From Strigops habroptila (taxonomy: Eukaryota; Chordata; Aves; Psittaciformes; Psittacidae): a stretch of 64,000 bases of DNA. The translations under genes were made by a program, and so were the position numbers. Shown here in pieces: positions 7,317 through 60,583 of this stretch. Under the pieces are notes generated by a model. The model ran no database searches, was not told the DNA's origin, and saw only the letters and a program-made list of their open reading frames with translations. The stretch covers positions 2,207,569 to 2,271,568 of the forward strand of contig NC_044297.2 of assembly GCF_004027225.2 (NCBI RefSeq), in the 5' to 3' direction. Positions within the stretch are counted from its first letter, which is position 1, and each line of letters begins with the position of its first letter.

Positions 7317-7421
7317 ATGGGGATTGGTAAGAATACCACTTCAAAATCAGTGGAGGCAGGAGGCTCAACAGAAGGCAAATATGAGGATGAAACTAAACAT
7401 CCCACCTTTTTCACCCTGCCT
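7317..7421 (+). CDS. SLC23A2: SLC23A2 coding exon 1
   Basis: Residues 1-35, the cytoplasmic N-terminal tail beginning [10 protein letters not shown]. It ends in phase 0 at CCT followed by the donor GTAAGT. The ATG has a strong context (A at -3, G at +4). Confidence 0.95.
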
Positions 7422-28400: not shown

Positions 28401-31400
28401 CGTCCTGACTTGCACAAGCAGCCCTGGAATTGGGCCAGTGGGCAAGTCAGAGAATGCCAGTCAGTGCTTATCAAAGGACATGAAAGTGTTTACAAGAGAA
28501 CACAAAATGCTTTTCACACCACCTTGGCTGTTTATCATCTTTTGCTTGGCCACCTCTAAGCTTAAAAGCTGTTAAAGGCTGTTTGTTATGGCATGAGGTA
28601 GAGTTGCACAACTGGTTCCCCCTTGTGCTGCTCCAAAATCAATGGGGTTATAATAGAATAATATTCTACCAGAAGAGAAGAATAGAAATAGTTAGGAATC
28701 CCGTTAGGTAGTAATGAGGCAGCTTCCTTGTGGCTTTCCATATGCTTTGATTCTGATTAGTTCTTAAAAGCAACCACTTCTAAAGCAGTACTTGCAAGCT
28801 GTATAATAGAAGCTTTTGGGAAAGAAGAGGAGGAAAACTTCTCCACCCTGATTAGACCTTTCTTATTTGAAGCCTTGTTCATTCACGTTCGTGTGACTTA
28901 AAGTTCCTTTTGTTTGCAAGAGGCTCATCTATTTCAAAGAGATAAAAGCATCAAGGCAATTGCTGTGGAAAACCTGCCAAGCTGTTCTGCAGGCTTAAAT
29001 TAATCTTATTTTCTTTTCTACAAAAGTAGGGACTTGGAAGGTGTTTGTGCAGTGATCATAGTTGGTTGTTGGCCATTCTCTTTGGGAGACTAAACTTGTA
29101 ACCAAAGACTGAGGTTTTTAGAGCAGTAATAATGAAGTGGCATTCGCCTCACTGATCAGAACTGTTTTCTCACAAGCAGTAGTTCAAATTCCTTCCTTCT
29201 GAACAAGGAATTGTTTTGGTGCGGTTTGGGGTTTTTTGGGTTTTTTCCAAGCATGATCAAAGCAGTTGCTTGGATGGTTTCTCCTTTGCTTTTTTCGTCT
29301 ATTTGAACTTGCCAGACTGTGTTATTTTGAAGGGAGTTTGTTGATTCCATTAAAGATGAATAATGGAATGATGGCCAGCAGGAGCAGGGCACTGATTGTC
29401 CCCCTGTGCTGGGCATTCGAGGCAGCACCTCGAATCCCGTGTTCAGCTCTGGGCCCCTCACTGCAAGAGAGACATTGAGGTGCTGGAGCGGGGCCAGAGA
29501 AGGGCCCCGGAGCTGGTGCAGGGCCTGGAGCACAAGTGTGATGGGGAACGGCTGAGGGACCTGGGGGGGTTTAGTCTGGAGAAGAGAAGGCTCAGGGGGG
29601 ACCTTATCGCTCTCTGCAACTGCCTGGCAGGAGGATGGAGCCAGGAGGGGGCTGGTCTCTGCTCCCAAGGAACAAGGGATGGGGCAAGAGGAAACGGCCT
29701 CAAGCTGCCCCAGGGCAGGTTTAGATGGAGCTGAGGAACAATTCCTTCCCCAGAGGGTGCTCAGGCATTGGAACAGGCTGCCCAGGGCAGGGCTGGAGTC
29801 ACCGTCCCTGCAAGTGTTCACACCCCGTGTAGCCGAGGCCTCAGTGCCATGGGTCAGTGGTGGCCTTGGCACTGCTGGGGAATGGTTGGACTCAATGATC
29901 CCATATGGAGACAGGCTGAGAACATTGGGGCTGTTCAGCCTGGAGAAGAGAAGCTGTATGGAGACCTCAGAACAGCTTCCAGTGTCTGAAGGGGGCTACA
30001 AGGATGCTGGAGAGGGACCTTCATCAGGGACTGTAGTGATAGGACAAGGGGTGATGGGTTCAAACTGAAACAGGGGAAGTTCAGGTTGGAGATAAGGCAG
30101 AAGCTCTTCCCTGTGAGGGTGCTGAGGCGCTGGCACAGGGTGCCCAGAGCAGTGGTGAATGCCCCATCCCTGGCAGTGTTCAAGGCCAGGTTGGACAGAG
30201 CCTTGGGCGACATGGTCTAGTGTGAGGCATCCCTGACCATGACAGGGAGTTGGAACTGGATGAGCTTTAAGGTCCTTTCCAACCCAAACCATTCTCTGAT
30301 TCTATGATCTTAAAGGTCTTTTCCAACGCATATAATTCTATGATCCTATGAACTTGCTGCATGTTTTGATATCTGAATTGTTTTCTGTGGCACAAGAGAT
30401 TTCAGTTTTCTTTCCTTCACAGTTCAGTGGGGACTGCCAACGATTTCAGCTGCTGGAGTAATAGGAATGCTCAGCGCCGTTGTTGCTAGCATTATTGAAT
30501 CAATAGGAGATTACTATGCCTGTGCCAGGTTGTCTTGTGCTCCTCCTCCACCTATTCATGCAATAAACAGGTATGTCAAAAAAAAGGAAGTATTTTTCAG
30601 TGTGTTAAGCTACTTTTATGGAGTTTTCCTCCTTGGGATAAGACAGGAACATGCTCTGAGGTGGTATTTTACAATTTGGTCAAACAGAAGAGCCAAAGAT
30701 CTGAAGTTTAAGATAGAACTATCATGCTTAATAATTCTATAGCAAATGTAGCATTGGAAACCTACTCCTGTTCCTACTCCTATTCCTGCTGGAGTCTGTG
30801 GATGTTAATAGTACAGTGTCTACAGGGACAGAACTCTAAATCAGATCTGGAATTAGGGGAGCTTGTCTCATTCACCTGAAATGCAGTCCTAGAAATAAAG
30901 AGCAGCTCTTAGTTTGACTTAATTCACTCAGTTTAAGAAGGTGGGTATCTAAGGCATAGAAAACAGGACTCGAGTTGGGTTTCCATGTGTGTTGCAGCTT
31001 GAAATGTGAATTATCATAATTCATGTGGGACAGATGCTTAGCAGGCTCCCCATGCAGATGTAAAGCACCACCTGAAGTGAGTCTGCCCTAATACAAGTTT
31101 GCCTCTATTTTGTGTTTCCCTGTTTTTGATTTACAGAGGGATTTTTATTGAGGGTCTCTCCTGTGTCTTGGATGGAGTATTTGGGACGGGGAATGGATCA
31201 ACTTCTTCCAGCCCTAACATTGGTGTCTTGGGCATCACAAAGGTATGTGCTTTACCTTGGTTACTCAGTGATGTGAGTATTTTTATCTCCTCTAGTGGGT
31301 GGCTCATGCCATTTTCATGTTTCACAGCATGATCCTCTTCCAAGAAACCATACTATTTAGGACTTGGTGCAGAGAAACTTTACACAGTGTTCTCAGTTTA

Positions 31401-34400
31401 CCTGATGTGTCTGTACCAGCTCTTTTCTAATGGAAATGCACTCTAGAGAAAGACTTAAACAATCTTCTTTTTATTTAAAGGGCAGTTAGAAAACCTGCAT
31501 AAAGCAGATGATGCTAAATAAGCTATCCCTTTGAAAACCAAGATGGTATTCCAGGGCTCCAGGGGGTTTGAGTTGAGGCATAAACACAGTAAACTGTACA
31601 GAAATTGCTACTCTTTGGGATGTCTTGATTCTGAAAGCATCACTGGAGTACTGGCTGGTGTTAATGTCTCACTTGAACACACAATAAAATGCAACTTGAG
31701 GTCCTTGGGTTTAACTGGAACCTGTTGGAGTGAGCCCAGAGGAGGCCATGGAGCTGCTGCGAGGGCTGGAGCAGCTCTGCTCTGGAGCCAGGCTGAGAGA
31801 GCTGGGCTGGGGCAGCCTGGAGAAGAGAAGGCTCCTGAAGGGGAGACCTTAGAGCAGCTCCAGTGCCTAAAGGGGCTCCAGGAAACCTGGAGAGGGGCTT
31901 TGGACAAGGGATGGAGGGCCAGGACAAGGGGAATGGCTTTAACCTGCCAGAGGGGAGATTGGGATGAGCTCTGAGGCAGAAGCTCTTCCCTGTGAGGGTG
32001 CTGAGGCGCTGGCACAGGGTGCCCAGAGAAGCTGTGGCCGCCCCATCCCTGGCAGTGTTCAAGGCCAGGTTGGACACAGGGGCTTGGGGCAACCTGCTCT
32101 AGTGGAAGGTGTCCCTGCCCGTGGCAGGGGGTTGGAACTGGAGGAGCTTTAAGCTCCCTTCAACCCAAACCAGTTGAAAGATTCTATGATTTATCTATCT
32201 CTGCTGACACTACAGTCAAGGTAACTTCAAAGTTAAATGCACCCTCAGTGTTTGTTTCCATCATGGTAGGTTTTTAAGGCCCTGAGCATTGTTAGGGAAT
32301 TATATACTTTTGGAGGTGCTACTTAGCAAAAAATCAAAGCAGGAGTTGCTTAGAAATCTTGAGGAGTTGCTTTGTTCACATGTGGGACTGGATGTGTGCT
32401 TGAATGCTTTGCTGAACCGGGAGACCTTGGACTGCAGACAGATTTGCTTGGTACTGTTAACTTAACCTTGTTTAGAAACTACCAGCAAGATCAGTAAGAG
32501 TAATTTATGTTGTAAATAGGTACATTTTGTTGCAGATTTCACTGGGAAGCTGTAAATCTTCCTGTGTACAAGATAGAAAAAATATCTGACAATAACTCAT
32601 CCCTCTGACTTAATCCAATAAAGATGATGAATTCCTCTTCAGCCATTTTTTGTCTTGCACAAAGGCTGATTCTGTTCAGTTTTAGGGTGGAATATAAATA
32701 CTAATAGCACCATCTGCTGACCTTACAGGCTTCATTCGGTTGGTGATGGAAATTTCCTAGAAGAAATTTCCCTTAGCAAAATCCTGAAATAAAGGTTTGT
32801 TCTGTTCTGCTTCCTCTCTGTTGTTACTTCATAGGAGTGGATATGAATGAACAGCACTTATTTATTCACAGTCCACAGCAAGCAGTGTACATTTTGCTTT
32901 GGAACAATGGAAAATGAATGTTAAACTGGCAGCTGTTCCAGAGAACAGAGTTAACTACAGTCTGCTCTGTTCAGAGCACATGATGGAAAGTGAATATGCC
33001 TTATCCAGAATGGCACAGCTGGATGGCTCTGCTCCAGTGTTTTGTCTTGTTTTCCTGTCTGCATGCTCATTCCTAAAAACCTCATACTTTTCAACTTTGA
33101 TTTACATCAAAATAGATGTCTGGCATGGAGATACTCTGCTGTTGATTTGGCAGAGGAAAACCTTTAGTGAGTAGAGAGTCCTGGTGATCCTGTTAGGCCA
33201 GTGCAACATTTGGGAAAGCATTTACCTCCTTTGAAATTAGTATATGATTACACTTAGAATTTAAATTGGAGGCTTCAGCTGGATGTAAATAGTGCAAAGC
33301 CTTTGAGTTAGGCTCCTTTATTTGATGAGAGGAGAATCAGTAAAGTCTGATTAGTTGGGGCAAAAGCCTAGGCAGCTTATGCCAAAGTGTTGGTGATGAA
33401 ATGGATACTCTGATAAGGTACCAGGTACCATATCATGCACTCCAAAGTAATCACATAAAGTGTGTCCCTGAGTGCCTGGGAATAAATAGATAGTTTGAGC
33501 TAAAAACTCACCAGGATGCTTTCAGTAGCTTCCAAAAGGAGCTTAATTTGTTTGCCTTGTAGTGGTTCAGCATTTGCATAAATAAATGTCGCTGTCATGT
33601 GGATGCTTTAAAGAATCTGGCTGTTTCATGCAGGAAGATAATTTTAGAGCAAGGTACTGGTGGTCCTAAGGAAAGGAGTATATTTTTATAAAGTAGAGAA
33701 AGATGCAAGCTAAATTCTGTTGTTATTCAAGTGAACACCCTGATTTACTGGTGTAGCTTCTGTTTGTAGCGGAACATATCTCACCTGACAGTTAAATAGT
33801 GAAGATGGGGGATAGATGGTGAATGCTCCATCTCTGGTGGTGTTCAAGGCCAGGTTGGATGAGTCTTGGAGCAACCTGGTCTAGTGGAAGGGCTCCCTGC
33901 CTGTGGCAGGGGGTTGGAAATGGATGACCATAAGGTCCTTTCCAATCCAAACCATTCTATGATTAACAAATTTGTATCTACTTCTCTTCATATGTTTTAA
34001 TGGGAGACCTACAAAGGGCTTTGCTAGAAACCACCTTACCAGCGTAACAGGTTGGTTTGGTTTGGTTTTGTCCCTGGGGCACGTCTTATGAATCATAGAA
34101 TCCCAGCCTGGTTTGGGTTAGAAGGAACCTTAAAGCTCCTCCAGCTCCAACCCCTGCCACGGGCAGGGACACCTTCCACTAGAGCAGGTTGCTCCAAGCC
34201 CCTGTGTCCAACCTGGCCTTGAACACTGCCAGGGATGGGGCAGCCACAGCTTCTCTGGGCACCCTGTGCCAGCGCCTCAGCACCCTCACAGGGAAGAGCT
34301 TCTGCCTCAGAGCTCATCTCAATCTCCCCTCTGGCAGGTTAAAGCCATTCCCCTTGTCCTGTCCCTACAGGCCCTTGTCCAAAGCCCCTCTCCAGGTTCC

Positions 34401-37400
34401 TCACAGCCCCCTTTAGGTATTGGAAGCCTGATACAATTGCATACTATGAAAATATCAACCCTTCAGGTTTATCAATGACCACTACAACATTGTGCCAGAG
34501 AAATACTGCCAAAGTTTGGATGCTTAAAATAAAAATGGGAAGTGCAGGCGTTTGGTTTCAGAGCATTAGCACAGCCATGATTTGCATATGAAGCAAATTC
34601 ACTTCTGATCTCAAAGAGGGATGTTATAAAATCAGTTGATAATCTCTGTCTAGAAAGCCTGCATCCAGTGAACTCTGTGGTAGGTAACTAATTCCTACAT
34701 TCTTGTGTAAAAGGGCAGCAACACATGGATTTGTTCTCTTTTGCTTTTCATTTGCATTACAATGGATGTTTGCCATCTCCTTGTTATGAGCTGTTTGTTT
34801 TCTTTATGGGGCTGCACCACATTTCATGCTAACTGTGGCTATAGCAGTTACAGATGGTTTTAAAGACTTGATGTTAAGGGAAACAAAATCAAACAAAGTT
34901 ATGTTATAACTGGAGTGCAGCCATGTTTCAGCTGAGCCCTCCAAGACTTTTGCCAATGCTCTACAGCCTGTGTTATAACACAACCAAAAAGCTTGCAGTT
35001 TGAAATGCAGGAAAGAAGAATAGAATGAAATGCAAGGCATCAAGTTGGACTAAATGTGGATTCTTTTCCTGTGTCCTTTCCCTTTTGTTCTGCTGCAGGT
35101 TGGAAGTCGCAGGGTCATTCAGTATGGGGCAGCCTTCATGCTCCTGCTTGGGATGGTTGGCAAGTTCAGCGCTCTCTTTGCGTCGCTGCCTGACCCCGTG
35201 CTTGGTGCCCTCTTCTGCACTCTCTTTGGTAACGTATGTTTTTTGCTCCTCTGTGTACTGCATGGCCAGACCTTTAGTGCTGTTTTAGATGTATGTTGCC
35301 ATCTTTTTGTTGAAGAATAAGACTATCTAAAAGCTGGGACTTGTTTTCTCTTTACTTAGGGATGATCACAGCCGTGGGTCTGTCTAACCTCCAGTTCATC
35401 GACTTAAATTCTTCTCGGAACCTGTTTGTACTTGGATTTTCCATTTTCTTTGGACTTGTCCTTCCAAGCTATCTCAAACAAAATCCACTGGTCACAGGTA
35501 AGTGTTTCTGCCCATTTACACAAAGCATACTTTTATCTCGTACTCCTGTGTGAAGTACATACGAGTACAAAGTAACCTAAAAGGTAAATAAGAGAAAAAC
35601 CAGAGTAACATGGAGTCAGTAAAAGCTCCAGATAAGAAGGGAGGTGTGTTCAGAGGAGAATTAATTGAGATGCTGAGACCTGAATTGAATGTTTCCATGG
35701 GATACATCTGAAGTTGTCCTGCTTTCTCTGGATATGACTACAGAGCAATGGAAGGAGGCGATCGCCAGCTGGACTGGAAGAAAGACTGAAAGGGTGAATC
35801 TGAGTTGTAAATGGTCTTAAAAGAATAAGGGGAAATACCAAGGTGGAGCTTGGAGGCTGGGAATTTGTTTGGGATTTTATCACTGCAGACATGTGTTCTG
35901 AATTTTAATAAACTCAGCTTCAGACTTTGGGCCAAATTCTTGCCCAAGGAAGTTGTGAATGCCCCATCCAGGCCAGGTTGGATGGGCCTTGGTCTAGTGG
36001 AAGGTGTCATGGCAGGGGATTGGAACCAAATGATCTTAAGGTCCTTCCCAACCCAAACCATTCTGTGATTCAGTTATAGTTTTGGTGAGTTTATGGAGAA
36101 GGTTTGCTATTTTAATACTACCTTCTCTATAGTGGTCATGTCCTCAAAGGAGGGCTCTCTACAGGAATACTGGAATTGTTTGGGGTTTGATTTTTAAGGG
36201 AAATATTAACTAACTTTTTATAGCTATCTCTTCAGAACCAGCTATAAGAGCATATCTAACCTATTTCAAGTTGTTCAGAAAAGTAGATCATTCAGGCAGA
36301 GTTAGGTAATGATGTATTAATGCAATGTTCTTCTCCAAAGTCTTGCCCTTTCAAAAGGTGAAGGTTTATAAAAGGAATTACTTCAGTCCACAGGATTTTA
36401 CATTATGAGTGTTTCTCCTTTTTTCCATTTTGTAGCTTTCCATTTAATTTAAATGAAGCAGTTGCCTGCAGTAGAAACTAAAAGGGCATTGCATGACATT
36501 TGCATAAGCAATGAAAGCTCACGGAGTTACACTTTGGGAAAGAAGGGGTCCCTGTGGTGGACTACATTAGGTGAAGGTTCATCTGCATCTATTCCCAGGT
36601 GGTTTTAAGGATCCTACTTGAGCAAAACCCTCAGTGAACTCAGTAGCAAGTTTTCCCTTTGTGTACATCAGTAGGACATGTATATGTGTGATAAAAAAAT
36701 GGAATTCTTAATGTTTTTCCCTGTTCTTGTAGGCATAGCAGGCATCGATCAAGTCCTAAACGTCCTTCTCACTACAGCCATGTTTGTCGGTGGCTGCGTT
36801 GCGTTTATTTTGGATAACACCATTCCAGGTCAGTCTTGTTACCTGAGATAACATCTGCCTTTCTGAATGGAGGTAGCACAGCATTCCATGGAGGCAGGAG
36901 ATGAGGAAGAGGGTAGTGCTTTTGTTGTTGACTTGTTCAACACCTCGAGCAGACTGCTTATCACCCACGTGCCTCAGTTTCCTTGAGAACGCTTGGTTAA
37001 GGTCTTCATCTTACTAAACATGTAAAATAGCTGATAAAAATCAAACCAGAATAGTCATCTTCAGAAGACTGTTACTTTAAATACTTTAAAGATCCAAACC
37101 TGCTTCCATTCAAGAGGAAAACTTTGCCTCAACTTTCAGTTACAAAATAAAACAGATAATAGCCACTTCCAATAAACATTTTTCCTCCTCTTCCTGCCTC
37201 TTTGAGGAGTCTGGAAGATCTTTCCACTGCTTCACTGACCACGGTGTCTGACACTTGGGGTCTTCTTTCTTCTCTTAACCTCTACTATATATGTGTGTGT
37301 TTACATGAAGGTACTCACATATGTGTTTTTTTCCCCTTTTGACTTCTAGGAAGCCCTGAAGAAAGGGGAATACGGAAATGGAAGAAAGGGGTTGGGAAAG

Positions 37401-37582
37401 GAAGCAAGTCACTGGATGGCATGGAAACATACGATTTGCCTTTTGGCATGAACTTTATTAAGAAATACAGGTGTTTCAGCTTCCTGCCCATCAGCCCAAC
37501 CTTCATGGGTTACACGTGGAAAGGCTTCAGGAAAAGCAGTAACTGCAGGAGTTCAGATGAAGACTCAGAAGCTACAGTATAG
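7317..37582 (+). CDS. SLC23A2: SLC23A2, sodium-dependent vitamin C transporter 2 (SVCT2), spliced from 15 coding exons
   Basis: This gene encodes a plasma-membrane Na+-coupled L-ascorbate importer of the nucleobase-ascorbate transporter (NAT/SLC23) family. The 15 exons listed separately join without a frame break into 649 residues, close to the roughly 650 of mammalian SVCT2, and every intron is GT-AG. Visible hallmarks are the QH pair of the first membrane region (Q107-H108, across an exon junction), two sequons in the extracellular loop (N187 and N195), E392 and D396 in the ESIGDYYA segment, and the NAT signature [10 protein letters not shown] at 442-451. Acidic and basic cytoplasmic tails flank the membrane core. 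The start at 7317 matches the family N-terminus [10 protein letters not shown] and has A at -3 and G at +4. An in-frame ATG at 7290 would add nine residues but has T at -3. No stop or frameshift is seen. SLC23A1 is less likely because the N-terminal tail is SVCT2-like. Confidence 0.97.
7624..8665 (-). mobile_element. Long antisense CR1 LINE with part of ORF2
   Basis: About 1.04 kb, the longest copy in the window. It starts with the reversed 3' terminus, carries an internal deletion near 7754 relative to the other copies, and reaches into the reverse-transcriptase coding part. Confidence 0.9.
8321..8647 (-). pseudogene. Remains of CR1 reverse transcriptase
   Basis: On the - strand, 108 codons read as the LINE reverse-transcriptase core: [17 protein letters not shown], then [14 protein letters not shown] and SSVISGVPQ. 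The usual FADD catalytic motif reads LAND, so an aspartate is lost. The protein is a fragment and cannot be active. Confidence 0.85.
9077..9175 (+). CDS. SLC23A2: SLC23A2 coding exon 2
   Basis: Residues 36-68, phase 0 at both ends, reading [11 protein letters not shown] through to the [15 protein letters not shown] block. The acceptor is TTGAAG and the donor GTACGT. It continues the cytoplasmic N-terminal tail, which is strongly conserved in SVCT2. Confidence 0.95.
9776..10158 (+). mobile_element. CR1 LINE 3' part, second subfamily
   Basis: Starts GGGACCTGGGGGGTTTAGTC and ends TTTCTGTGATTCAATG. It differs from the commoner subfamily and matches the copies at about 29399 and 48210. Confidence 0.88.
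11160..11215. repeat. AT-rich tandem repeat
   Basis: Several imperfect copies of AAGGTATAT(A/C)TAA within an SLC23A2 intron. Confidence 0.7.
11585..11711 (+). mobile_element. CR1 LINE 3' fragment
   Basis: Sense copy of about 125 bp ending in AACCAGTCTATGATA. Confidence 0.85.
11905..12190 (-). mobile_element. CR1 LINE internal fragment
   Basis: Antisense and lacking the 3' terminus. It matches the internal part of the long copy at 7624-8665. Confidence 0.85.
13808..13924 (+). CDS. SLC23A2: SLC23A2 coding exon 3
   Basis: Residues 69-107, phase 0 at both ends. It runs from [14 protein letters not shown] to [14 protein letters not shown], which enters the first membrane segment. The final Q107 is the Q of the family QH motif. 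Donor GTATGT. Confidence 0.96.
13925..15264 (+). other. SLC23A2: SLC23A2 intron
   Basis: A GT-AG intron. It contains a 25-bp imperfect tandem duplication at about 14685-14735. A CR1 3' end (about 15138-15226) stops only about 39 nt before the next acceptor. Confidence 0.9.
15138..15226 (+). mobile_element. CR1 LINE 3' end
   Basis: About 90 bp of the second subfamily (GGTTGGACTTGATGATCTTA), ending 39 nt before SLC23A2 coding exon 4. Confidence 0.85.
15265..15422 (+). CDS. SLC23A2: SLC23A2 coding exon 4
   Basis: Residues 108-159 plus two bases of R160. It starts [20 protein letters not shown] and ends in the [11 protein letters not shown] membrane segment. H108 completes the QH motif. Acceptor TTCACAG, donor GTGAGG. 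Confidence 0.96.
16418..16707 (+). mobile_element. CR1 LINE 3' fragment
   Basis: Sense copy of about 290 bp ending CCAGGCTGGGATTCTGTG. Confidence 0.9.
18547..18702 (-). mobile_element. CR1 LINE 3' fragment
   Basis: Antisense, about 155 bp. It lacks the last bases of the reversed terminus. Confidence 0.85.
20226..20314 (+). CDS. SLC23A2: SLC23A2 coding exon 5
   Basis: Completes R160 and codes through T189, then gives one base of D190. It reads [18 protein letters not shown], then a loop ending KCNNT with the first N-glycosylation sequon (N187). Acceptor CCACCAG, donor GTAATT. Confidence 0.96.
20315..21780 (+). other. SLC23A2: SLC23A2 intron with a G-quadruplex-like run
   Basis: A GT-AG intron without CR1. 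A run of four G-tracts lies at about 20491-20511, some 180 nt after the donor. Otherwise nothing recognised. Confidence 0.9.
20491..20511 (+). repeat. G-quadruplex-type motif
   Basis: Four G-tracts of 7, 4, 4 and 3 separated by single T residues, on the + (transcript) strand of an SLC23A2 intron. Confidence 0.7.
21781..21851 (+). CDS. SLC23A2: SLC23A2 coding exon 6
   Basis: Residues 190-213, the extracellular loop reading [18 protein letters not shown]. It carries the second sequon (N195-G-T). It starts with two bases of D190 and ends in phase 0 before GTAATG. Confidence 0.96.
21852..23007 (+). other. SLC23A2: SLC23A2 intron
   Basis: A GT-AG intron. A possible antisense tRNA-derived SINE remnant lies at about 22665-22785 (separate entry). 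Confidence 0.9.
22665..22785 (-). mobile_element. Possible tRNA-derived SINE remnant
   Basis: On the - strand it reads like a tRNA-type head: an A-box-like TAGTTGTGTGG, then a B-box-like CTGGGTTCCAGGC about 45 nt later, comparable to MIR/CORE-SINE heads. It is old and diverged, and family assignment is not possible by eye. Confidence 0.4.
23008..23189 (+). CDS. SLC23A2: SLC23A2 coding exon 7
   Basis: Residues 214-273 plus two bases of L274. It reads [20 protein letters not shown], then [20 protein letters not shown], two membrane segments. Donor GTAAGT directly after ATGTT. Confidence 0.97.
23190..26132 (+). other. SLC23A2: SLC23A2 intron
   Basis: A 2.9-kb GT-AG intron with one CR1 3' fragment at about 24855-24958 (+). 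The acceptor has a long C/T tract. Otherwise nothing recognised. Confidence 0.9.
24855..24958 (+). mobile_element. CR1 LINE 3' end
   Basis: Sense fragment of about 105 bp ending CCATCCTATGATTCC. Confidence 0.85.
26133..26253 (+). CDS. SLC23A2: SLC23A2 coding exon 8
   Basis: Residues 274-314, reading [20 protein letters not shown], then a basic loop [18 protein letters not shown]. Ends in phase 0 before GTAAGT. Confidence 0.97.
26254..27147 (+). other. SLC23A2: SLC23A2 intron
   Basis: A GT-AG intron with one CR1 3' fragment at about 26453-26601 (+). Confidence 0.9.
26453..26601 (+). mobile_element. CR1 LINE 3' end
   Basis: Sense fragment of about 150 bp ending CACTCTGTGATTCTGTGG. Confidence 0.85.
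27148..27304 (+). CDS. SLC23A2: SLC23A2 coding exon 9
   Basis: Residues 315-366 plus one base of F367. It reads [20 protein letters not shown], then a loop with [20 protein letters not shown]. Acceptor TTTCACAG, donor GTAAGT. Confidence 0.97.
27605..28172 (+). mobile_element. CR1 LINE, about 570 bp
   Basis: Sense copy from GGTGGTGACTCTCCCCCTCT to AACCAGGCTGGGATGCAG. It carries the unusual ACTTTTCCC in place of GGGTGCCC, shared with the copy at 53628-54326. Confidence 0.9.
29399..30350 (+). mobile_element. Nested CR1 pair
   Basis: The outer, second-subfamily copy runs from about 29399 to 29898 and resumes at about 30307-30350 (TTAAAGGTCTTTTCCAAC). A second CR1 (about 29903-30306) is inserted in its 3' end, in the same orientation. 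Confidence 0.85.
30423..30570 (+). CDS. SLC23A2: SLC23A2 coding exon 10
   Basis: Residues 367-415 plus two bases of R416. It includes the membrane segment [20 protein letters not shown] with E392 and D396, polar residues in the substrate/ion region of NAT transporters. Donor GTATGT. Confidence 0.97.
30571..31136 (+). other. SLC23A2: SLC23A2 intron
   Basis: A 566-bp GT-AG intron with nothing recognised beyond a short imperfect CCTACTCCTGTT-like tandem at about 30760-30790. Confidence 0.9.
31137..31242 (+). CDS. SLC23A2: SLC23A2 coding exon 11 (NAT signature)
   Basis: Residues 416-451. It ends with the family signature [10 protein letters not shown] (442-451), which lines the substrate path in NAT proteins. 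Acceptor TTTACAG, donor GTATGT, phase 0. Confidence 0.97.
31722..32190 (+). mobile_element. CR1 LINE, about 470 bp
   Basis: Sense copy from GTTGGAGTGAGCCCAGAGGA to AAAGATTCTATGATTT. Confidence 0.9.
33806..33964 (+). mobile_element. CR1 LINE 3' end
   Basis: A diverged sense copy ending AAACCATTCTATGATT. Confidence 0.85.
34091..34427 (-). mobile_element. CR1 LINE 3' part
   Basis: Antisense, about 335 bp, starting ATCATAGAATCCCAGCCTGG. Confidence 0.9.
35099..35228 (+). CDS. SLC23A2: SLC23A2 coding exon 12
   Basis: Residues 452-494 plus one base of G495. It reads [20 protein letters not shown] and [15 protein letters not shown], two membrane segments. The donor is GTAACG, a weaker form. Confidence 0.96.
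35229..35359 (+). other. SLC23A2: Short SLC23A2 intron (131 bp)
   Basis: The smallest intron of the gene, with donor GTAACG and acceptor TACTTAG. Confidence 0.93.
35360..35497 (+). CDS. SLC23A2: SLC23A2 coding exon 13
   Basis: Residues 495-540 plus one base of G541. It reads [20 protein letters not shown], then [18 protein letters not shown]. Donor GTAAGT. Confidence 0.97.
35498..36732 (+). other. SLC23A2: SLC23A2 intron
   Basis: A GT-AG intron with one short CR1 fragment at about 35940-36071 (+). Confidence 0.9.
35940..36071 (+). mobile_element. CR1 LINE 3' end
   Basis: A diverged sense fragment with internal deletions, ending ACCATTCTGTGATTC. Confidence 0.8.
36733..36828 (+). CDS. SLC23A2: SLC23A2 coding exon 14
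   Basis: Residues 541-572 plus one base of G573. It contains [20 protein letters not shown], the last membrane segment, then ILDNTIP. Donor GTCAGT. Confidence 0.96.
36829..37349 (+). other. SLC23A2: SLC23A2 intron
   Basis: A 521-bp GT-AG intron. A short stretch at about 36968-36985 (GTGCCTCAGTTTCCTT) resembles the 3' part of ancient MIR/L2 repeats, but is too short to call. Confidence 0.88.
37350..37582 (+). CDS. SLC23A2: SLC23A2 coding exon 15 (C-terminus)
   Basis: Residues 573-649 and the TAG stop. It is a basic cytoplasmic tail reading [20 protein letters not shown], then [16 protein letters not shown] and an acidic [10 protein letters not shown] end. The acceptor is ACTTCTAG. Confidence 0.97.
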
Positions 37583-50109: not shown

Positions 50110-50168
50110 ATGGATTACGGCGGCTGCGAGTACCCGGTTCCTTGCGGGAAAGACAAATACATCTCCAA
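50110..50168 (+). CDS. RASSF2: RASSF2 coding exon 1
   Basis: Residues 1-19 plus two bases of K20 ([19 protein letters not shown]). Donor GTAAGA. Confidence 0.95.
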
Positions 50169-53100
50169 GTAAGATGCTTGGCAGGGCTGGAGCACAGGAA
50201 TACCATCAGTGCTGCTAGATGGGGAGTTCACCGCAATATTCCGGGGCGGGTTTGAGCTGGGAGGAGTGGAGTGACCCTGGGATGTAACTCGATTTGGTTG
50301 GATTTGGATTGAGAAAGCCATTTTGGGGCAAGAAATGGCCATTTCCTTTTAAAAAATGGGGTTGTTGATGGGATTTTGAGATGTTTTTTCTTAGGAGCAT
50401 GGCCAAATGCTTCTATAAACCATGAAATACTTCATAGAGTTTAGGAAGTAGAGGTTTTGCTGGAGAAGTCCGCATTAGGAATTGCTTTTTTGTGCTTTGG
50501 TAAAGAAGTAAAATGCTTCCTAAGTTCCAAGGAGGATTTTTGGGGAGATAAAGCAGCTTTGTGCTACTTCCCCCCTCTTTTTTCTTCCTCCAAACCCTGA
50601 ACCCCCAAATGATTTGTGCTTATTATACTGGTCTGCTGGTGCTGAGCATCCTCCAACTCCATCAGCCACCCAGCTGAGTTAAGGACAGCTTTGTGATGGA
50701 TTGCCAGGGTCATTGCTTCCCGGGATTCAGAGCTGGGAATGGGTGATTTTGAATGATTATTTTTAATGTTCATTATTCATTTGCAACTGGAACAGGCCTC
50801 AGGCTTAATCTGAGCTCAAGGTCAGGCTCTGGAACGAGGAGCTGATGTGATAAACTCGCCTGTGATAACTTGTGACTCCAGCATGACCCAAGGGCTTGGG
50901 TGCTCTGAAAATACACTGTTTTTTCCAACCTTGTGACCAAATCCCCCACAGTCTGACAGGTTTTGTTGTGTCTTTTCACAAGGTTCATGGTTGCAGGGAG
51001 CTTGTCCCTATAAGGGTTGAACCCACAGTGGATACCCCCAACAAGGGATGTCTAAAGGCAGCAAAAGACCCAAATCTGCCTGAAATGAAGCTGGTTTGGG
51101 TCCCCCAGCAGTGATGCACATTCATTGCCCAGCCTGACCCTGGAAGCAATTCCTGCTTTCTCCCATATTCCCACAATTTCCCCCCCTGGCCAGCCCAGGG
51201 GTACCGCACAGTGCCTGCAATGTCCCCCCTTGCTCCTCCACCCCTCTTCTCAGCATCTTTCCCATTTTTCCTCTCAGAAACGAGCTCCTTTTACACTTGA
51301 AGACGTACAACATCTACTATGAAGGACAAAACTTGCAGCTGCGGCACCGGGAGGTAAGAACCCCCCTGGAGCAGGGACCCAGCAGTGAAAACCCAATGAA
51401 ATTGGGTTTGATTCACACTAAAGCCATCATTTCTTGGTGCTGTTCCTTGCTGTTTGTATCTCGGAGCCTGAGCTGCCCATCTCTCCTGCAGGAGGAAGGT
51501 GAACTCATCGTGGAGGGGCTGCTGAACATCTCCTGGGGCTTGCGGCGACCCATCCGCCTGCAGATGCAGGATGACAACCAGCGCATCCGCCCTCCACCAT
51601 CCTCTTCCTCCTGGCACTCGGGCTGCAACCTGGGAGCCCATGGGTGAGCGAGGGGAGAAGAATCATGGAATTAGGGAAAAAAGAGGGAAAAAGGGGTAGG
51701 TTCAGCTTTGCTTGTGCAGGTTGGGTGCTGGAGCTTGCTAAAAAGTGGTTTTGGGCTTCAGCATCCCTGCCTGGGAAGGCAGCTGGGATAAGACCCTCCA
51801 AAGGGTTTTTTGGGAGCAGAACAGGGTTGGATTTGGGACTTATATTGCAACTAGACTGTGCTGCAATCCTACAGGGCTGGTTATCTGCCAAATCCGAGGG
51901 AGAACAGGCTGCTTCCCATCCTGGAAACAGCAGCGTGGGGGCTTAAAGGGGAAATTATCCCTGTTCTCATTCCTGCTGCAGCTCTTTGCTAACAGGGCAC
52001 CCTTCATTATCCATTGCCAGGTCTGTGCTGAAGCCCAGCACCTTGCCAGACATCCAGGTCACGGATGCAGAGGCTGTGCCAAACAGAGAAGCTCCCCGGA
52101 GCGGTGCAGGTGAGCCGGGCACGGATCCGGATGGATTTGGCTGGGAGTTGGGAGCAGCTGCTTTATGCTCCAGTTTCATTGGAGGAAACATAAACCAGGC
52201 ATTTATTTTCTCCAGCAGTCATGTCCCCATCGTCCCCCTGGTTCCTTTAAGCCATTTGCAAAGCACCTCTATTTCATGTATTTAATTGCAGCAAGAAAAA
52301 CCATCACCCCAATGGGCCGAAACCCTTCCAAAGGGATTTTGCTTGGGGAAGGGATGTGCTGAAGAGGAGCTTGGAAAGAAATAGGGGGATGGAGCAAAGA
52401 GCCTCGTGGGATCATTGGGAAAAGGATGTCGGCACTTCCCCTTCCCGGAGGCTCTGCTTTTAGGGAAGAAGAATAGGGCTGTTGGGAAGTGCCGTTGCCA
52501 TGGGGAAGTCAACACTGCTGCAAAGTGTTTTCCCCTCCCTGGTTTCTCCTTCTTTATGGAGGGGGAAGAGCCCTTCAGACAGTGCTTCGTTAACCCCTTG
52601 TTTGGAGCACAAGGCAGCACAAGGTGTCTCACCGGCAATTCCCACTGGGAAAAACGGCTTTATGCATTTTTCCCATTAAATCAGGGCATTTTTCAGGTGT
52701 TCCTGGCTTTTTCAAAGTATTTTTTGGGGGGAGTGGTGATATTTTGATGGAAATAGACCCTGCAGACAGAGAAGAACCAGCCAATCCTTCCAGCTCCAGG
52801 ATGCTCATCCACTTCCCAGCTCAGGAAGTGCAAAACTTATTGATCCATGAAACACTTTGCCCCATCCTTCATTCTCCAGCTTTTCCCCTTTCTCTTTCTG
52901 ATCTCTCCATGCACAACACTTATTTCCCCCCCTTCTTAATTCAAGCTTGCCCTGGTGATACCCACACCGCGTCGGGCCATAGAACTACCCCAGCAGCTAT
53001 TTCAGCCCAATGACGTTAATCCTCCGCCAGTGCATAAGAAAGAACTCTTTTATTACATTTCTTCCTCCAAAAGCCTGTTAAAATCAGTGCATAACGTGCG

Positions 53101-56100
53101 TGCCCATCTCCTCCTGAGTGCTTAGTCACTGTGGCCTGTGGTGTGCATCTAGAGAGGAGAGATTTGTCTTGCTGCAGACATGCTTGGAATGAAAACATCC
53201 AAGCTTGAGCCCCAGAGGTTCATTAAAAATGGATGAAGAGCTGGTTTATAATAATCTGGAGCCAGGCCAGTTTTCACACAGAGATCTGAAGCACTGGCCT
53301 CTTTTGCCTGTTCTCATTAAAGGAGAAGAGAAAAATATAGAAGTTAGATAATGAAAAAGCAAGTAAAGATGCTCCAGCCGCCGGGAGAAGAGGCTTTATC
53401 CAGGTAGCAGCCTGGATTTAAGCAGTTCATTATGAATTAATAGGCTCCTTTAAGAGCTGGGGGAGAATAAACCAGTAGCTGCCATGGCTTAAACTGGTGG
53501 GTTAAATCTGTGCTGAGCAGTTTGTGGGGCCATATGTCTGGGATGGGAACTTTTGCATCCATGGGGGGATTTCCAGCTGCTATTTCGCAGCAGGGGTAGG
53601 ACCCTGGGGGGTTCCCCTTTGCCCCAGGTCATAGAATCATAGAATCTCAGACTGGTTTGTGTTGGAGGGAGCTTAAAGCTCATCCAGTTCCAACCCCTGC
53701 CATGGACAGGGACACCTTCCACTAGAGCAGGTTGCTCCAAGCCCCTGTGTCCAACCTGGCCTTGAACACTGCCAGGGATGGGGCAGCCACAGCTTCTCTG
53801 GGAAAAGTCTGTGCCAGCACCTCAGCACCCTCACAGGGAAGAGCTTCTGCCTCAGAGCTCATCTCAATCTCCCCTCTGGCAGGTTAAAGCCATTCCCCTT
53901 GGCCTGTCCCTCCAGGCCCTTGTCCAAAGCCCCTCTCCAGGTTTCCTGGAGCCCCTTTAGGCACTGGAGCTGCTCTAAGGTGTCCCCTTCAGGAGCCTTC
54001 TCTTCTCCAGGCTGCCCCAGCCCAGCTCTCTCAGCCTGGCTCCAGAGCAGAGCTGCTCCAGCCCTCGCAGCAGCTCCAGGGCCTCCTCTGGCCTCGCTCC
54101 AGCAGCTCCACGTCCCTCTGGTGCTGTTGCCCCAGAGCTGGATCAGGACTGCAGGGGGGTCTCCCCTTCCCGCAGCAGAGGGGCAGGATCCCCTCCTGAC
54201 CTGCTGCTCACGCTCTGGGGGTGCAGCCCAGCACACGGGGGGGTTCTGGGCTCAAGCACACACTGAAGCCGGGTCATGGGGAGCTTCTCCTCACCCAACA
54301 CCCCAAGTCCTTCTCCTCAGGGCTGTCCTTCCAACGTGTCTTTTCCAGCCCCCAAATCACAAGCAGAGGAGACGCCGCAGCTGATGCGGACACGGAGCGA
54401 TGTTGGGGTACGGCACCGGGGCAGTGCCCGCACCCCCAGCGAGCAGCGACGCATCCGCCGGCACCGCTTCTCCATCAACGGGCACTTCTACAACCACAAG
54501 GTGAGCCCCAGGCTCCCCAGAGCCTCTCCCCACTGGCGGAATCCAAGGTTTAAATGGACTTTGCATCCCACAGACATCCGTGTTCACGCCGGCGTACGGC
54601 TCCATCACCAACGTCCGCATAAACAGCACGATGACGACTCCCCAGGTCCTCAAACTGCTGCTCAATAAATTCAAGGTACATTAGATATCCCACCCCAATG
54701 CTCCTCAGTTGCTCTGCATGGGGAGTTTATATCCCATGGATACAAAACACAATGGCAGAGCGAAATAATGTGGTATGTTCTTTAAAGCTGGGGAAATCTC
54801 AGGTGGAATTGTGGCCCTTTAACAGTGATTTATGTCTCCATTCAGATTGAAAACTCAGCGGAGGAGTTTGCGCTGTACATTGTCCACACCAGTGGAGGTG
54901 AGTGTCCAAAACCCCCCTGGTGCAGCCATGGCAAAGCCCCATCACACACTGGGCTGACCACTGGTGCTTTTGGCATTGCAGAGAAGCAGAAGCTGCGAGG
55001 CAGCGATTACCCCCTGATCGCCCGCATCCTGCAGGGCCCCTGCGAGCAGGTCTCCAAGGTCTTCCTCATGGAGAAGGACCAGGTGGAAGAAGTCACCTAT
55101 GACGTGAGTTTGAAAGCACGGGATGCTTGTGGATGGGCTTGGGAGGCAGCCGGGGCCGGAATACTGCGTGGATATAGAATCCCAGCCTGGTTTGTGTTGG
55201 AAAGGACCTTAAAGCCCACCCAATTCCAGCCCCCTGCTTATGTTTGCTGTGAAACAAGCAGGCTGATCTGAGGTCTCAAACGTTATTCACAAGGAACAAA
55301 GTTCTATTTAGCTTTCTAGAGCCATTCATTTCTATTGAAATGACTATAAAACCTTTACTAAATAAAAGACATGCCATGAATATTAGCCACAAGTTGCTGT
55401 CAGCTGCCTGCTCTTTCCACACAGTGTTTCTAAAAGGCTTTTTGTGCCCTTTTGCTTTGCTTTGAGCCCGCATCTCCCTGTGAGAACTCCCCATCTTATG
55501 AGAAAAACCTTGTCCTGTGCCTAAAAAGCACCTTTAAAGTCTAACCAAGAACAAACACCCACAGCCCTGTTTTGCCATCCCAAATCTGAGCACAGAAGAG
55601 CAATAGCTGCACAGCCTTGAGCCTAATTCATACCTTTCCTGCTGAGGAACGCGCTGCGGGGTGGGAATGGCTCGGTTGTGCCATCTGCCGGCTTCCTCCC
55701 ACCTTCCTCCTCAAACCAGAGCAAAATGAAGCACTTTTTAGAGTATATTTGGGCTTAAACAGCGCTCAGTCACACGCTGGGTTTGCTCAGGGCTCACCAT
55801 AAGAAGCAGCCAAGTCTTGCAGCCAGTGGGTAAAGCAAATAAGGTTCATGGGGATTTTTTCCCCTATAATTAGCTGGCTGTGCAGGGAAACATGGTTTCT
55901 TTTAGGGTTGTTGCAAAAGGCAGTGGGGGTCCTTGATTTCCCCAGTTAAATGAGGGAGAGGATGCTGCGAAGTTGCCTTCAGCCTCACGGGGTGGGTGCA
56001 TCGCCCTCTTCATTGCCTGTTTTGATGTTTCTCCTCCACCCAGGTAGCTCAGTACATCAAATTCGAGATGCCCATCCTCAGGAGCTTCATCCAGAAGCTG

Positions 56101-56405
56101 GAGGAAGAGGAGGATCGCGAAGTGAAGAAGCTAATGCGCAAGTACGCCAGGCTCGGTGGCATCGAGGGGAGATGCTAGGAGTTAAGGACATGGTTGGAGG
56201 GTTATTTTGATGCTGAGGATTCATTTGCACAGCCTTGCATCCCTAATCCATGCATTATTCCAAGGCTTTCTTGGCAGTTTGGGTTAAAACCCCAGCTTGC
56301 TGCTGCAAAAATCCTCTTTTCCTTTGCCTCTCCAGATACTCCATCCTCCGGCTGATGATTGAGCAAAGGCTGGAGGAGATTTCCGAAGGCCCGACGGCGA
56401 TGTGA
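50110..56405 (+). CDS. RASSF2: RASSF2, Ras association domain family member 2, spliced from 10 coding exons
   Basis: RASSF2 is a K-Ras-binding adaptor and tumour suppressor that binds the MST1/2 (Hippo) kinases through its C-terminal SARAH helix. The ten exons join in frame to 323 residues, near the 326 of the human protein, and all introns are GT-AG. Visible parts are the N-terminus [20 protein letters not shown]; the conserved [12 protein letters not shown] and [20 protein letters not shown] blocks; a variable linker (about 96-125); a basic patch [15 protein letters not shown]; the Ras-association domain (about 177-268); and the SARAH region (about 269-317, Glu/Lys-rich). The ATG at 50110 has A at -3 and G at +4. 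An out-of-frame ATG lies 19 nt upstream. Similarity is specific to RASSF2 rather than RASSF4 or RASSF6. Confidence 0.97.
50169..51277 (+). other. RASSF2: RASSF2 intron
   Basis: A 1.1-kb GT-AG intron. No repeat element or other exon recognised. Confidence 0.9.
51278..51353 (+). CDS. RASSF2: RASSF2 coding exon 2
   Basis: Residues 20-45, reading [20 protein letters not shown], then QLRHRE. Acceptor CCTCTCAG, donor GTAAGA, ends in phase 0. Confidence 0.97.
51492..51643 (+). CDS. RASSF2: RASSF2 coding exon 3
   Basis: Residues 46-95 plus two bases of G96. It carries [20 protein letters not shown] and [20 protein letters not shown]. The acceptor CCTGCAG is followed by GAG. The intron before it is 138 bp. 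Confidence 0.97.
51644..52020 (+). other. RASSF2: RASSF2 intron (377 bp)
   Basis: A GT-AG intron (donor GTGAGC, acceptor TTGCCAG), with nothing else recognised. Confidence 0.9.
52021..52109 (+). CDS. RASSF2: RASSF2 coding exon 4 (variable linker)
   Basis: Residues 96-125 plus one base of A126, reading [20 protein letters not shown]. It is the least conserved part of the protein. The frame and both splice sites fit the neighbouring exons. Confidence 0.92.
52110..54348 (+). other. RASSF2: RASSF2 intron with large antisense CR1
   Basis: A 2.2-kb GT-AG intron. An antisense CR1 at about 53628-54326 takes up its last third and stops about 22 nt before the acceptor, so the branch-point region lies in CR1-derived DNA. 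Confidence 0.9.
53628..54326 (-). mobile_element. CR1 LINE, about 700 bp
   Basis: Antisense copy starting with a doubled reversed terminus (ATAGAATCATAGAATCTC) and ending about 22 nt before a RASSF2 acceptor. Confidence 0.9.
54349..54500 (+). CDS. RASSF2: RASSF2 coding exon 5
   Basis: Residues 126-176. It reads [18 protein letters not shown], then the basic [19 protein letters not shown]. Acceptor TTTTCCAG, donor GTGAGC, ends in phase 0. Confidence 0.97.
54574..54675 (+). CDS. RASSF2: RASSF2 coding exon 6 (start of Ras-association domain)
   Basis: Residues 177-210, phase 0 at both ends: [20 protein letters not shown], then [14 protein letters not shown]. The intron before it is only 73 bp. 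Confidence 0.97.
54846..54897 (+). CDS. RASSF2: RASSF2 coding exon 7
   Basis: Residues 211-227 plus one base of E228: [17 protein letters not shown], inside the Ras-association domain. The flanking introns are 170 and 84 bp. Confidence 0.97.
54982..55103 (+). CDS. RASSF2: RASSF2 coding exon 8 (end of Ras-association domain)
   Basis: Residues 228-268: [20 protein letters not shown], then [20 protein letters not shown]. Ends in phase 0 before GTGAGT. Confidence 0.97.
55104..56043 (+). other. RASSF2: RASSF2 intron (940 bp)
   Basis: A GT-AG intron with a short antisense CR1 3' fragment at about 55172-55240. Nothing else recognised. Confidence 0.9.
55172..55240 (-). mobile_element. CR1 LINE 3' end
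   Basis: About 70 bp, antisense, ATAGAATCCCAGCCTGGTTT onward. Confidence 0.8.
56044..56141 (+). CDS. RASSF2: RASSF2 coding exon 9 (SARAH helix)
   Basis: Residues 269-300 plus two bases of K301: [20 protein letters not shown], then [12 protein letters not shown], a charged amphipathic helix typical of SARAH domains. Donor GTACGC. Confidence 0.97.
56336..56405 (+). CDS. RASSF2: RASSF2 coding exon 10 (C-terminus)
   Basis: Residues 301-323 and the TGA stop: [18 protein letters not shown], then PTAM. It completes the SARAH helix. The intron before it is 194 bp, with acceptor CTCCAG. Confidence 0.97.
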
Positions 56406-59637: not shown

Positions 59638-59727
59638 AACCATAGGTTGTCCGATCCTAAGGCCACCACACGGCGCACAGACCGTGCTCACTGTCCCTCC
59701 CTGTGCCCCCTCCGCAGGTCGGGCAGG

Positions 59728-60171
59728 ATGAGGCCCCGCGATGCCTGGTGCTGGGTGGCCGTGCTGCTGCTCGTCCTCTTCAGCGACGTCTCCGGCGGCC
59801 GCCGCGGTGCGGGCGGGAGAACCGGCGCCCGAGGCGGCAGCGGGGGGCTGCGCGGGGGCTTCCGAGCTGTGTCCCGCGGCGGGGGCACCCCGGGCCGTGG
59901 CTCCAAAGTGGCGGGGGCCATCGCGGCCGGCGCTGCCGCGGGGTACGGGATGGGGCTATTGGGGCGCCCGCGGCCGCCCCGCCTGGGTCACGGCGTGCCG
60001 GGAGCGCGGCAGCCCGCGGCCGCGAGTGGATTTCATGCTCCGGGTTGGCCAGACATGGGTGTCAAGAGGGGACCCCCCAACCGAGCCCATGGGGACCGGC
60101 GTGGTGGCATCAGCCCCGTCCTGCTGCTGGCACCCACTGTCTGCTTCATCAGCCATGGGCTGCAGCGCTGA
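59728..60171 (+). CDS. SPRNB: Shadoo-type prion-family protein, Shadoo-2 (SPRNB)-like
   Basis: The ORF encodes 147 residues. Seen in order: a signal peptide with core WVAVLLLVLF (cleavage likely near residue 22); an Arg/Gly-rich basic stretch (about 23-58); an Ala/Gly hydrophobic segment (60-79, KVAGAIAAGAAAGYGMGLLG) like the palindromic region of PrP and Shadoo; a proline/basic stretch; and a hydrophobic tail (128-142), possibly a GPI-attachment signal. Shadoo proteins share this layout, a length near 150 and a one-exon ORF. No Cys or N-glycosylation sequon is seen in the predicted mature chain, and there is no PrP-like globular domain. The ATG (A at -3) lies 10 nt after a CCTCCGCAG acceptor, as expected for a prion-family coding exon. 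Position next to RASSF2 favours Shadoo-2 over Shadoo (SPRN), which maps elsewhere in mammals. The symbol is tentative. Function is unknown; a cell-surface or secreted protein is inferred. Confidence 0.75.
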   Translation: MRPRDAWCWVAVLLLVLFSDVSGGRRGAGGRTGARGGSGGLRGGFRAVSRGGGTPGRGSKVAGAIAAGAAAGYGMGLLGRPRPPRLGHGVPGARQPAAASGFHAPGWPDMGVKRGPPNRAHGDRRGGISPVLLLAPTVCFISHGLQR

Positions 60172-60577: not shown

Positions 60578-60583
60578 AATAAA
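60578..60583 (+). terminator. SPRNB: Candidate poly(A) signal of the Shadoo-like gene
   Basis: AATAAA followed by a T-rich stretch at about 60605-60615. Another AATAAA lies at 60998-61003 and could serve a longer transcript. Confidence 0.5.

What the first reader, a model, noticed from the sequence alone, without database searches (positions are those of the whole stretch)
59728..60171. Shadoo-2-like prion-family gene next to RASSF2 in a bird
The ORF has the full Shadoo layout: signal peptide, Arg/Gly-rich basic region, Ala/Gly hydrophobic segment, hydrophobic tail, one coding exon. Shadoo-2 (SPRNB) is best described in fish, close to RASSF2 and PrP-like genes. A bird copy at this place would mean the lineage survived in sauropsids. 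I cannot check whether it is already annotated.
Basis: partly seen in the sequence, partly recalled or inferred. Interest (0 to 1): 0.8.

Follow-up and report, generated by a model that had tools for sequence, protein, structure and literature searches.

The report
Bird Shadoo-type prion-family gene beside RASSF2
This stretch holds a small conserved bird gene for a secreted protein that looks like Shadoo, a relative of the prion protein, beside the RASSF2 gene; a similar gene of fish was once reported to be missing from land vertebrates.

Summary
The ORF at 59728-60171 (+) is real and conserved. Its length alone is within chance (130 of 1000 shuffles), but a protein search finds 17 relatives of similar length; the seven with organism names are all birds, ratite to passerine. 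NCBI already names four of them 'shadow of prion protein' or '-like'.

A profile search adds two distant relatives from unnamed samples. One, P0018, hits only prion protein in the PDB (22 of 22 hits, one protein in many copies, weak E 0.21-0.72); reversed and shuffled profiles hit none. The other and the window protein alone hit nothing. The model is disordered, without a globular domain, as Shadoo is. The gene lies 3.3 kb past RASSF2.

It is not ordinary bird SPRN (chromosome 6 in chicken, 117 aa, glycosylated). I read it as a Shadoo-type gene of the prion locus, perhaps the tetrapod Shadoo-2 that a 2007 survey did not find. That orthology is unproven: no Shadoo or fish Shadoo-2 sequence could be fetched, no tree with them was built, and PRNP lies outside the window.

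The parts
59728..60171 (+). Coding sequence, 147 aa, Shadoo-type protein, single coding exon
   Evidence: 17 relatives; alignment
59728..59793 (+). Signal peptide (residues about 1-22)
   Evidence: Hydropathy; AF2 helix 3-22; weak match to the Doppel and PrP N-terminal Pfam models, E 0.0086 and 0.28, below cut-off
59794..59901 (+). Basic Arg/Gly-rich segment (residues about 23-58), with RG and RGG motifs
   Evidence: no secondary structure in the low-confidence model
59902..59964 (+). Ala/Gly hydrophobic segment (residues about 59-79), the most conserved block; its counterpart in P0018 aligns to the PrP hydrophobic segment
   Evidence: Residues 59-82: 21 of 24 invariant in 18 rows; PDB alignments of P0018, (E 0.21 at best)
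60103..60168 (+). Hydrophobic C-terminal tail (residues about 126-147), presumed GPI-anchor signal
   Evidence: Hydropathy; AF2 helices 130-133 and 135-144; anchoring itself inferred
59690..59717 (+). Pyrimidine tract and CAG: presumed 3' splice site before the coding exon (exon start 59718)
   Evidence: Sequence; a similar upstream frame is seen in P0001
58769..58831 (+). Possible 5' exon: reads MAQQLWYNEPVC-stop, close to the N-terminal extension of the Calypte model (P0011), with a donor-like GTGAGG from 58832
   Evidence: inference, no transcript
60578..60583 (+). AATAAA polyadenylation signal
50110..56402 (+). RASSF2 exons (neighbour)
7317..37576 (+). SLC23A2 exons (neighbour)

Best explanation
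A protein-coding gene of the Shadoo type, kept beside RASSF2 in birds and probably in some non-bird vertebrates; most likely the tetrapod counterpart of the fish Shadoo-2 / PrP-related genes. Shown: the conserved ORF, its layout, its place after SLC23A2 and RASSF2, no predicted globular domain, and a weak resemblance of the family to PrP in the signal peptide and the hydrophobic segment that controls do not show. Inferred: the precursor enters the ER by its signal peptide, is trimmed at the C-terminus and GPI-anchored on the cell surface; the disordered Arg/Gly-rich arm binds polyanions such as nucleic acids; and the conserved hydrophobic segment contacts PrP or membranes, as reported or proposed for mammalian Shadoo.
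For: 17 relatives, E 5.0e-75 to 5.8e-32, seven named, from four bird orders including a ratite (orders recalled). The hydrophobic block 59-82 is the most constant part (21 of 24 positions invariant in 18 rows). A profile search adds P0018 (E 5.5e-10) and P0019 (E 1.2e-8), colinear along the protein. In the PDB, the A3 profile has two hits up to E 10, both prion protein (E 0.15 and 1.1); P0018 has 22, all prion protein (E 0.21-0.72). Controls: reversed profile 11 hits, none prion; column-shuffled profile no hits. Pfam's only hits for the window protein up to E 10 are the Doppel and PrP N-terminal models, below cut-off. Disordered AF2 model without globular domain; Shadoo is reported to be disordered (PMC4324250, passages). 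Gene order SLC23A2-RASSF2-candidate; [quoted passage not shown]
Against: No PrP match is significant on its own; the reversed control reached E 0.31 with Rheb, so only the identity and place of the hits speak, not their E-values, and the 22 hits are near-copies of one protein. In the A3 profile the stretch over the PrP hydrophobic segment has an independent E of 34. P0019 and the window protein alone have no PDB hit up to E 10. No Shadoo-named Pfam model appears for 18 close rows or the two distant rows. The four-residue Arg spacing typical of Shadoo is not above chance. None of 18 close rows has an N-glycosylation sequon; only P0018 and P0019 have one, N-W-S rather than N-X-T. Fish SPRNB is reported between calsenilin and PrP1, not beside RASSF2. 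PRNP is not in the window. The family tree puts Rhea inside the other birds on a long branch, not outside them. Database proteins are intact by selection, so broken copies in other birds would not have been seen. No expression data.
Confidence: 0.6

Rival explanations
1. A Shadoo-type gene that arose by duplication within the tetrapod or sauropsid line (from SPRN or from the N-terminal half of PRNP) and lies at the prion locus; it works like Shadoo but is not the orthologue of fish Shadoo-2.
For: No named fish or amphibian relative was found. Fish SPRNB is reported next to calsenilin and PrP1 rather than RASSF2. A 2007 survey found no tetrapod SPRNB.
Against: The fish PrP-related genes also lie downstream of PrP, the side that borders RASSF2. 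Only the candidates sharing most words were scored (7988), so missing fish kin mean little.
Confidence: 0.25
2. It is the ordinary bird SPRN (Shadoo), misread as a second gene.
For: Same general layout; NCBI names four of seven named relatives 'shadow of prion protein' or '-like'.
Against: Chicken SPRN is on chromosome 6, with enoyl-CoA hydratase upstream and GTP and PAOX on the other side (PMC1781936, passages). Chicken and duck Shadoo have 117 aa, are identical to each other and keep the glycosylation motif (PMC9247643, PMC11171214, passages). The window protein has 147 aa, no sequon, and differs by 12-34% from its 17 close relatives.
Confidence: 0.04
3. A worn-down Doppel (PRND) or PRNP derivative: it sits about where mammals have PRND, lost its globular domain and kept the signal peptide and a hydrophobic stretch.
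For: Best Pfam hit of the window protein is the Doppel N-terminal model, E 0.0086, below cut-off. Doppel is reported lost in birds (PMC4324250, passages).
Against: The match is the signal peptide only, and that model was hit by 2 of 18 rows. The most conserved part is the hydrophobic segment, which a published family scheme shows in PrP and Shadoo but not Doppel (figure legend). The gene runs on the strand of RASSF2, whereas mammalian PRND is tail to tail with RASSF2 (recalled).
Confidence: 0.07
4. An unrelated secreted Gly/Arg-rich protein that merely resembles Shadoo.
For: Low complexity; ORF length within chance; each PrP match is weak, and two of four PDB searches with true sequences gave none.
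Against: Signal peptide, basic arm, hydrophobic segment and tail come in Shadoo order; the only PDB hits of P0018 are PrP, in the same two segments, and controls lose this; it lies beside RASSF2.
Confidence: 0.04

Closest known systems
Fish Shadoo-2 (SPRNB, sprn2) and PrP-like / PrP-related genes
   Same: Short Shadoo-like GPI proteins encoded next to PrP genes (PMC1781936; PMC2735946; PMC11711791; passages); [quoted passage not shown]
   Different: Reported from fish only; SPRNB lies between calsenilin and PrP1. Sequence could not be compared here.
Shadoo (SPRN)
   Same: Signal peptide, Arg/Gly-rich basic arm, Ala-rich hydrophobic segment, hydrophobic tail, disorder, coding region in one exon (here; reported).
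   Different: Other locus (chicken chromosome 6), 117 aa in chicken and duck, glycosylation site kept, tetrarepeats; here no sequon in 18 close rows and no significant four-residue Arg spacing.
Prion protein (PRNP)
   Same: Weak similarity in the signal peptide and hydrophobic segment, in the same order.
   Different: No predicted globular domain, 147 aa, Arg/Gly-rich arm instead of octarepeats.
Doppel (PRND)
   Same: Similar chromosomal slot (mammalian slot recalled); signal peptide resemblance.
   Different: Doppel is a globular domain without the hydrophobic segment.

Membership tests
Prion protein family (broad) | Detectable sequence kinship to PrP, Shadoo or Doppel | tested here: inconclusive
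   All PDB hits of A3 (2 of 2) and of P0018 (22 of 22) are prion protein, but at E 0.15-1.1; window protein and P0019 alone none; reversed and shuffled controls no prion hit
Shadoo type | Signal peptide, basic Arg/Gly arm, Ala/Gly hydrophobic segment, hydrophobic tail, in this order | tested here: met
   Hydropathy, charge and sequence
Shadoo type | No C-terminal globular domain; intrinsically disordered | tested here: met
   AF2 mean pLDDT 56.5, pTM 0.18, helices only at 3-22, 62-67, 130-133, 135-144; a prediction from 20 rows
Shadoo (SPRN) | Pfam Shadoo model | tested here: inconclusive
   No Shadoo-named family up to E 10 in 18 close rows and two distant rows; no positive control was run, and that the library holds such a model is recalled
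Shadoo (SPRN) | NXT N-glycosylation site in the C-terminal part | tested here: not met
   0 of 18 close rows has any N-X-S/T; P0018 and P0019 have NWS
Shadoo (SPRN) | Arg tetrarepeats (XXRG, RXXX) | tested here: not met
   XXRG occurs 5 times in the window protein, but basic pairs four apart are no more than in shuffles (1178 of 5000 as high)
Shadoo (SPRN) | Locus beside GTP/PAOX | tested here: not met
   Neighbours here are SLC23A2 and RASSF2
Shadoo-2 (SPRNB) | Position at the prion locus near PrP and calsenilin | tested here: inconclusive
   RASSF2/SLC23A2 found; part of KCNIP3 (calsenilin) sought and not found in the window; PRNP not seen
Shadoo-2 (SPRNB) | Groups with fish Shadoo-2 in a tree | not tested
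PRNP / PRND | Globular three-helix domain | tested here: not met
   only N-terminal prion/doppel models hit in Pfam
GPI-anchored protein | Cleaved C-terminal signal and anchor | not testable with these tools
   Hydrophobic tail present; no predictor or assay

The most novel reading that the evidence does not exclude
Shadoo-2 is not a fish invention: the prion locus of the bony-vertebrate ancestor already held a Shadoo-type gene beside PRNP; birds and probably other sauropsids still have it, and it escaped notice in GC-rich DNA. The absence reported in 2007 would then reflect missing data. This would make the idea that PrP's N-terminal half came from a Shadoo-like gene (SPRNB1 model, PMC5382174, passages) testable in living tetrapods.
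Probability: 0.55. Interest if true: 0.7.

Novelty: new member of a known kind. Interest (0 to 1): 0.55.

Why it matters
In the papers seen here birds have PRNP and SPRN, and Doppel is reported lost. A further conserved Shadoo-type gene beside RASSF2 would, if it is Shadoo-2, correct the statement that tetrapods lack SPRNB, give birds a natural system for asking how Shadoo-like proteins and PrP share work, and bear on where the N-terminal half of PrP came from. It also shows how database names mislead: one orthologue is called 'spidroin-1-like'.

Tried and rejected
ORF length as evidence: rejected, because 130 of 1000 shuffles reach it. Arg tetrarepeat spacing as a Shadoo mark: not above chance in the window protein (1178 of 5000) or in the other 19 rows (lowest 904 of 5000). 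Ordinary SPRN: rejected on locus, length and glycosylation site. Doppel remnant: rejected mainly because the match is confined to the signal peptide.

Region search 52-112 returned the same 17 proteins. A scan of viral contigs matched 64 stretches, none a relative. Fold search was not run because the model is low confidence. The tree of 20 family members supports the passerines and P0018+P0019 each as one side of a branch (100/99), but has 10 of 17 inner branches open, joins Apus with Calypte in only 32% of bootstrap trees, and does not put Rhea outside the other birds; Rhea and P0019 are long branches. So it does not test vertical descent well. SPRNB in PMC3468620 is an amplicon name and in PMC2716538 an allele (passages). 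The 'sprn2' in PMC6815274 is part of a transgene name; in PMC6983714 zebrafish sprn2 marks a mixed cluster of newborn and mature neurons (passage). The other three papers that one search listed for 'sprn2' besides these (PMC3499577, PMC7843523, PMC7947915, on mosquitoes) and PMC11082204 (kiwifruit) were not opened. Paper search was badly posed: the 30 papers listed of 9,631 do not hold Shadoo or SPRN.

Changed on rechecking: the acceptor ends at 59717, not 59716; 'five bird groups' became four orders; the Pfam Shadoo row became inconclusive; confidence went from 0.62 to 0.60 because coverage, the open tree and the weak second PrP stretch are now counted.

Full report
The observation. The window holds an ATG-to-stop frame of 147 codons at 59728-60171 on the + strand. 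The DNA is GC-rich there (0.82 in 59801-60000, with CpG observed/expected 1.00), and in such DNA long frames come easily: 130 of 1000 dinucleotide shuffles of 59717-60400 contain a + strand ATG frame of 147 aa or more, and a second real frame is open for 153 aa. So length proves nothing. Conservation does. A search of 5.8 billion proteins (7995 candidates scored) returned 17 relatives up to E 10, with E from 5.0e-75 to 5.8e-32. Seven carry organism names and all are birds: Morphnus, Apus, Calypte, Prinia, Sylvia, Hirundo and Rhea. The relatives are 135-169 aa long; the best local match covers 34-100% of the query, lowest in Rhea. In an alignment of 18 rows, identity to the window protein is 66-88%, 51 of 147 positions are invariant, and many of the length differences fall in the glycine-rich arm. 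Database proteins are intact by selection, so broken copies would not show.

Anatomy. Hydropathy shows hydrophobic parts at residues about 4-24, 59-79 and 125-145. Between the first two lies an Arg/Gly-rich arm; the whole protein has a net charge of +17. The middle segment and its flank (59-82) are nearly frozen: 21 of 24 positions invariant in 18 rows. AlphaFold2, with 20 rows, gives mean pLDDT 56.5 and pTM 0.18, with helices only at 3-22, 62-67, 130-133 and 135-144: in the prediction, no globular domain. A splice-acceptor-like CAG ends at 59717 and an AATAAA lies at 60578. A short reading frame at 58769 resembles the N-terminal extension of the Calypte gene model and is followed by a donor-like GTGAGG from 58832, a possible 5' exon; this is inference.

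Neighbours. tblastn with recalled human proteins places SLC23A2 exons at 7317-37576 and RASSF2 exons at 50110-56402, both +, so the gene follows RASSF2 by 3.3 kb on the same strand; part of KCNIP3 (calsenilin) gave no hit. [quoted passage not shown] PRNP was not seen: the longest complete ATG frame beyond 60.5 kb is 97 aa. That PRNP lies beyond 64 kb is expected, not shown.

Kinship. Searches with the single protein find the same 17. A profile of ten rows trimmed to the part after the glycine-rich arm (7988 candidates scored) added P0018 (E 5.5e-10) and P0019 (E 1.2e-8), both from the source marked 'lgn', without organism names. They align from signal peptide to tail (46 and 39% identity to the window protein), look poorer in Gly and Arg by eye, and each has an N-W-S sequon that all 18 close rows lack. 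They may be non-avian orthologues; the organisms are unknown. Against the PDB, a profile of seven rows (five close, two distant) has two hits up to E 10, both prion protein (E 0.15 and 1.1), through the signal peptide and glycine-rich part; a second stretch over the PrP hydrophobic segment has an independent E of 34. P0018 alone has 22 hits, all prion protein, E 0.21-0.72, through the hydrophobic segment and in one case the signal peptide; these are near-copies of one protein and count once. P0019 and the window protein have none. Reversing the rows gives 11 hits, none prion, with a best E of 0.31; shuffling the columns gives none. So each match is within noise by E-value, and the weight lies in the hits being PrP, in the right two segments. 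The only Pfam hits of the window protein are the N-terminal models of Doppel (E 0.0086) and bovine PrP (E 0.28), below their cut-offs; across 18 rows they are hit by 2 and 4 members, and the PrP model by both distant rows (E 0.036 and 0.026). No Shadoo-named model was hit.

Not ordinary SPRN. Chicken SPRN lies on chromosome 6 with enoyl-CoA hydratase, GTP and PAOX (PMC1781936, passages). Chicken and duck Shadoo are 117 aa, identical, with the glycosylation motif (PMC9247643 and PMC11171214, passages). The present protein is 147 aa, has no sequon, differs by 12-34% from its close relatives and lies beside RASSF2. The Arg tetrarepeats of Shadoo are not demonstrable here: basic residues four apart are no commoner than in shuffles.

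Which member is it. The 2007 survey states that no SPRNB homologue was found in tetrapods and suggests that SPRNB arose in fish (PMC1781936, passages). A 2017 review says SPRNB2 descendants are found in fish and thought lost or unrecognisable in mammals (PMC5382174, passages). A 2024 review says that short GPI-anchored PrP-related genes lie downstream of each fish PrP locus (PMC11711791, passages). A Shadoo-type gene on the RASSF2 side of the prion locus in birds fits an old neighbour of PRNP that fish kept in duplicate. But SPRNB is reported between calsenilin and PrP1, no fish sequence could be compared, and a separate tetrapod duplication is not excluded. The family's own tree is mostly unresolved and does not put Rhea outside the other birds. 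I give the Shadoo-2 reading 0.55.

How it probably works. By analogy with mammalian Shadoo: ER entry, GPI anchoring at the cell surface, a disordered basic arm able to bind nucleic acids, and a hydrophobic segment that is the reported contact with PrP and is needed for the protective effect (PMC5098206, PMC6815274, PMC11171214, passages). The near-invariance of that segment suggests that it is the working part; the rest is inferred. Chicken Shadoo has no predicted GPI signal, so anchoring here should be tested, not assumed. Zebrafish sprn2 is named as a marker of a neuron cluster (PMC6983714, passage), which makes brain the first place to look for transcripts.

What is known. Gene models exist: 'shadow of prion protein-like' in Calypte, Sylvia and Hirundo, 'shadow of prion protein' in Rhea, 'spidroin-1-like' in Prinia, uncharacterized in Apus and Morphnus. 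Eight full-text searches listed no paper, by title, abstract or opened passage, on a tetrapod Shadoo-2. They cover open-licence papers only, three listings were cut (40 of 57, 30 of 9,631, 20 of 71), and I read passages, not whole papers.

Noticed in passing
58981-59122 and 59433-59574: Two opposed copies of a repeat (142 nt arms, 98% complementary, 310 nt apart), reading like CR1-type tails (name recalled), form a large inverted repeat just upstream of the coding exon, probably inside its intron.
   Followed up: partly
window: 1164, 2543, 5867, 16540, 18677, 28007, 32022, 34237, 53780, 59067, 59466: The same repeat tail recurs 11 times in the window (23-base probe with up to 3 mismatches), on both strands, counting the two copies of the inverted repeat.
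   Followed up: no
58769-58807: A 12-codon frame MAQQLWYNEPVC-stop matches the start of the Calypte protein model, where it runs on into the coding exon; here it ends in a stop, so it may be a 5' UTR exon with a conserved short frame.
   Followed up: partly
P0018, P0019 (no window coordinates): Both distant relatives have an N-W-S glycosylation site in a segment where the 18 close rows have no Asn sequon.
   Followed up: partly
P0013: An orthologue in Prinia subflava carries the database name 'spidroin-1-like', probably a misannotation driven by glycine and alanine content.
   Followed up: no
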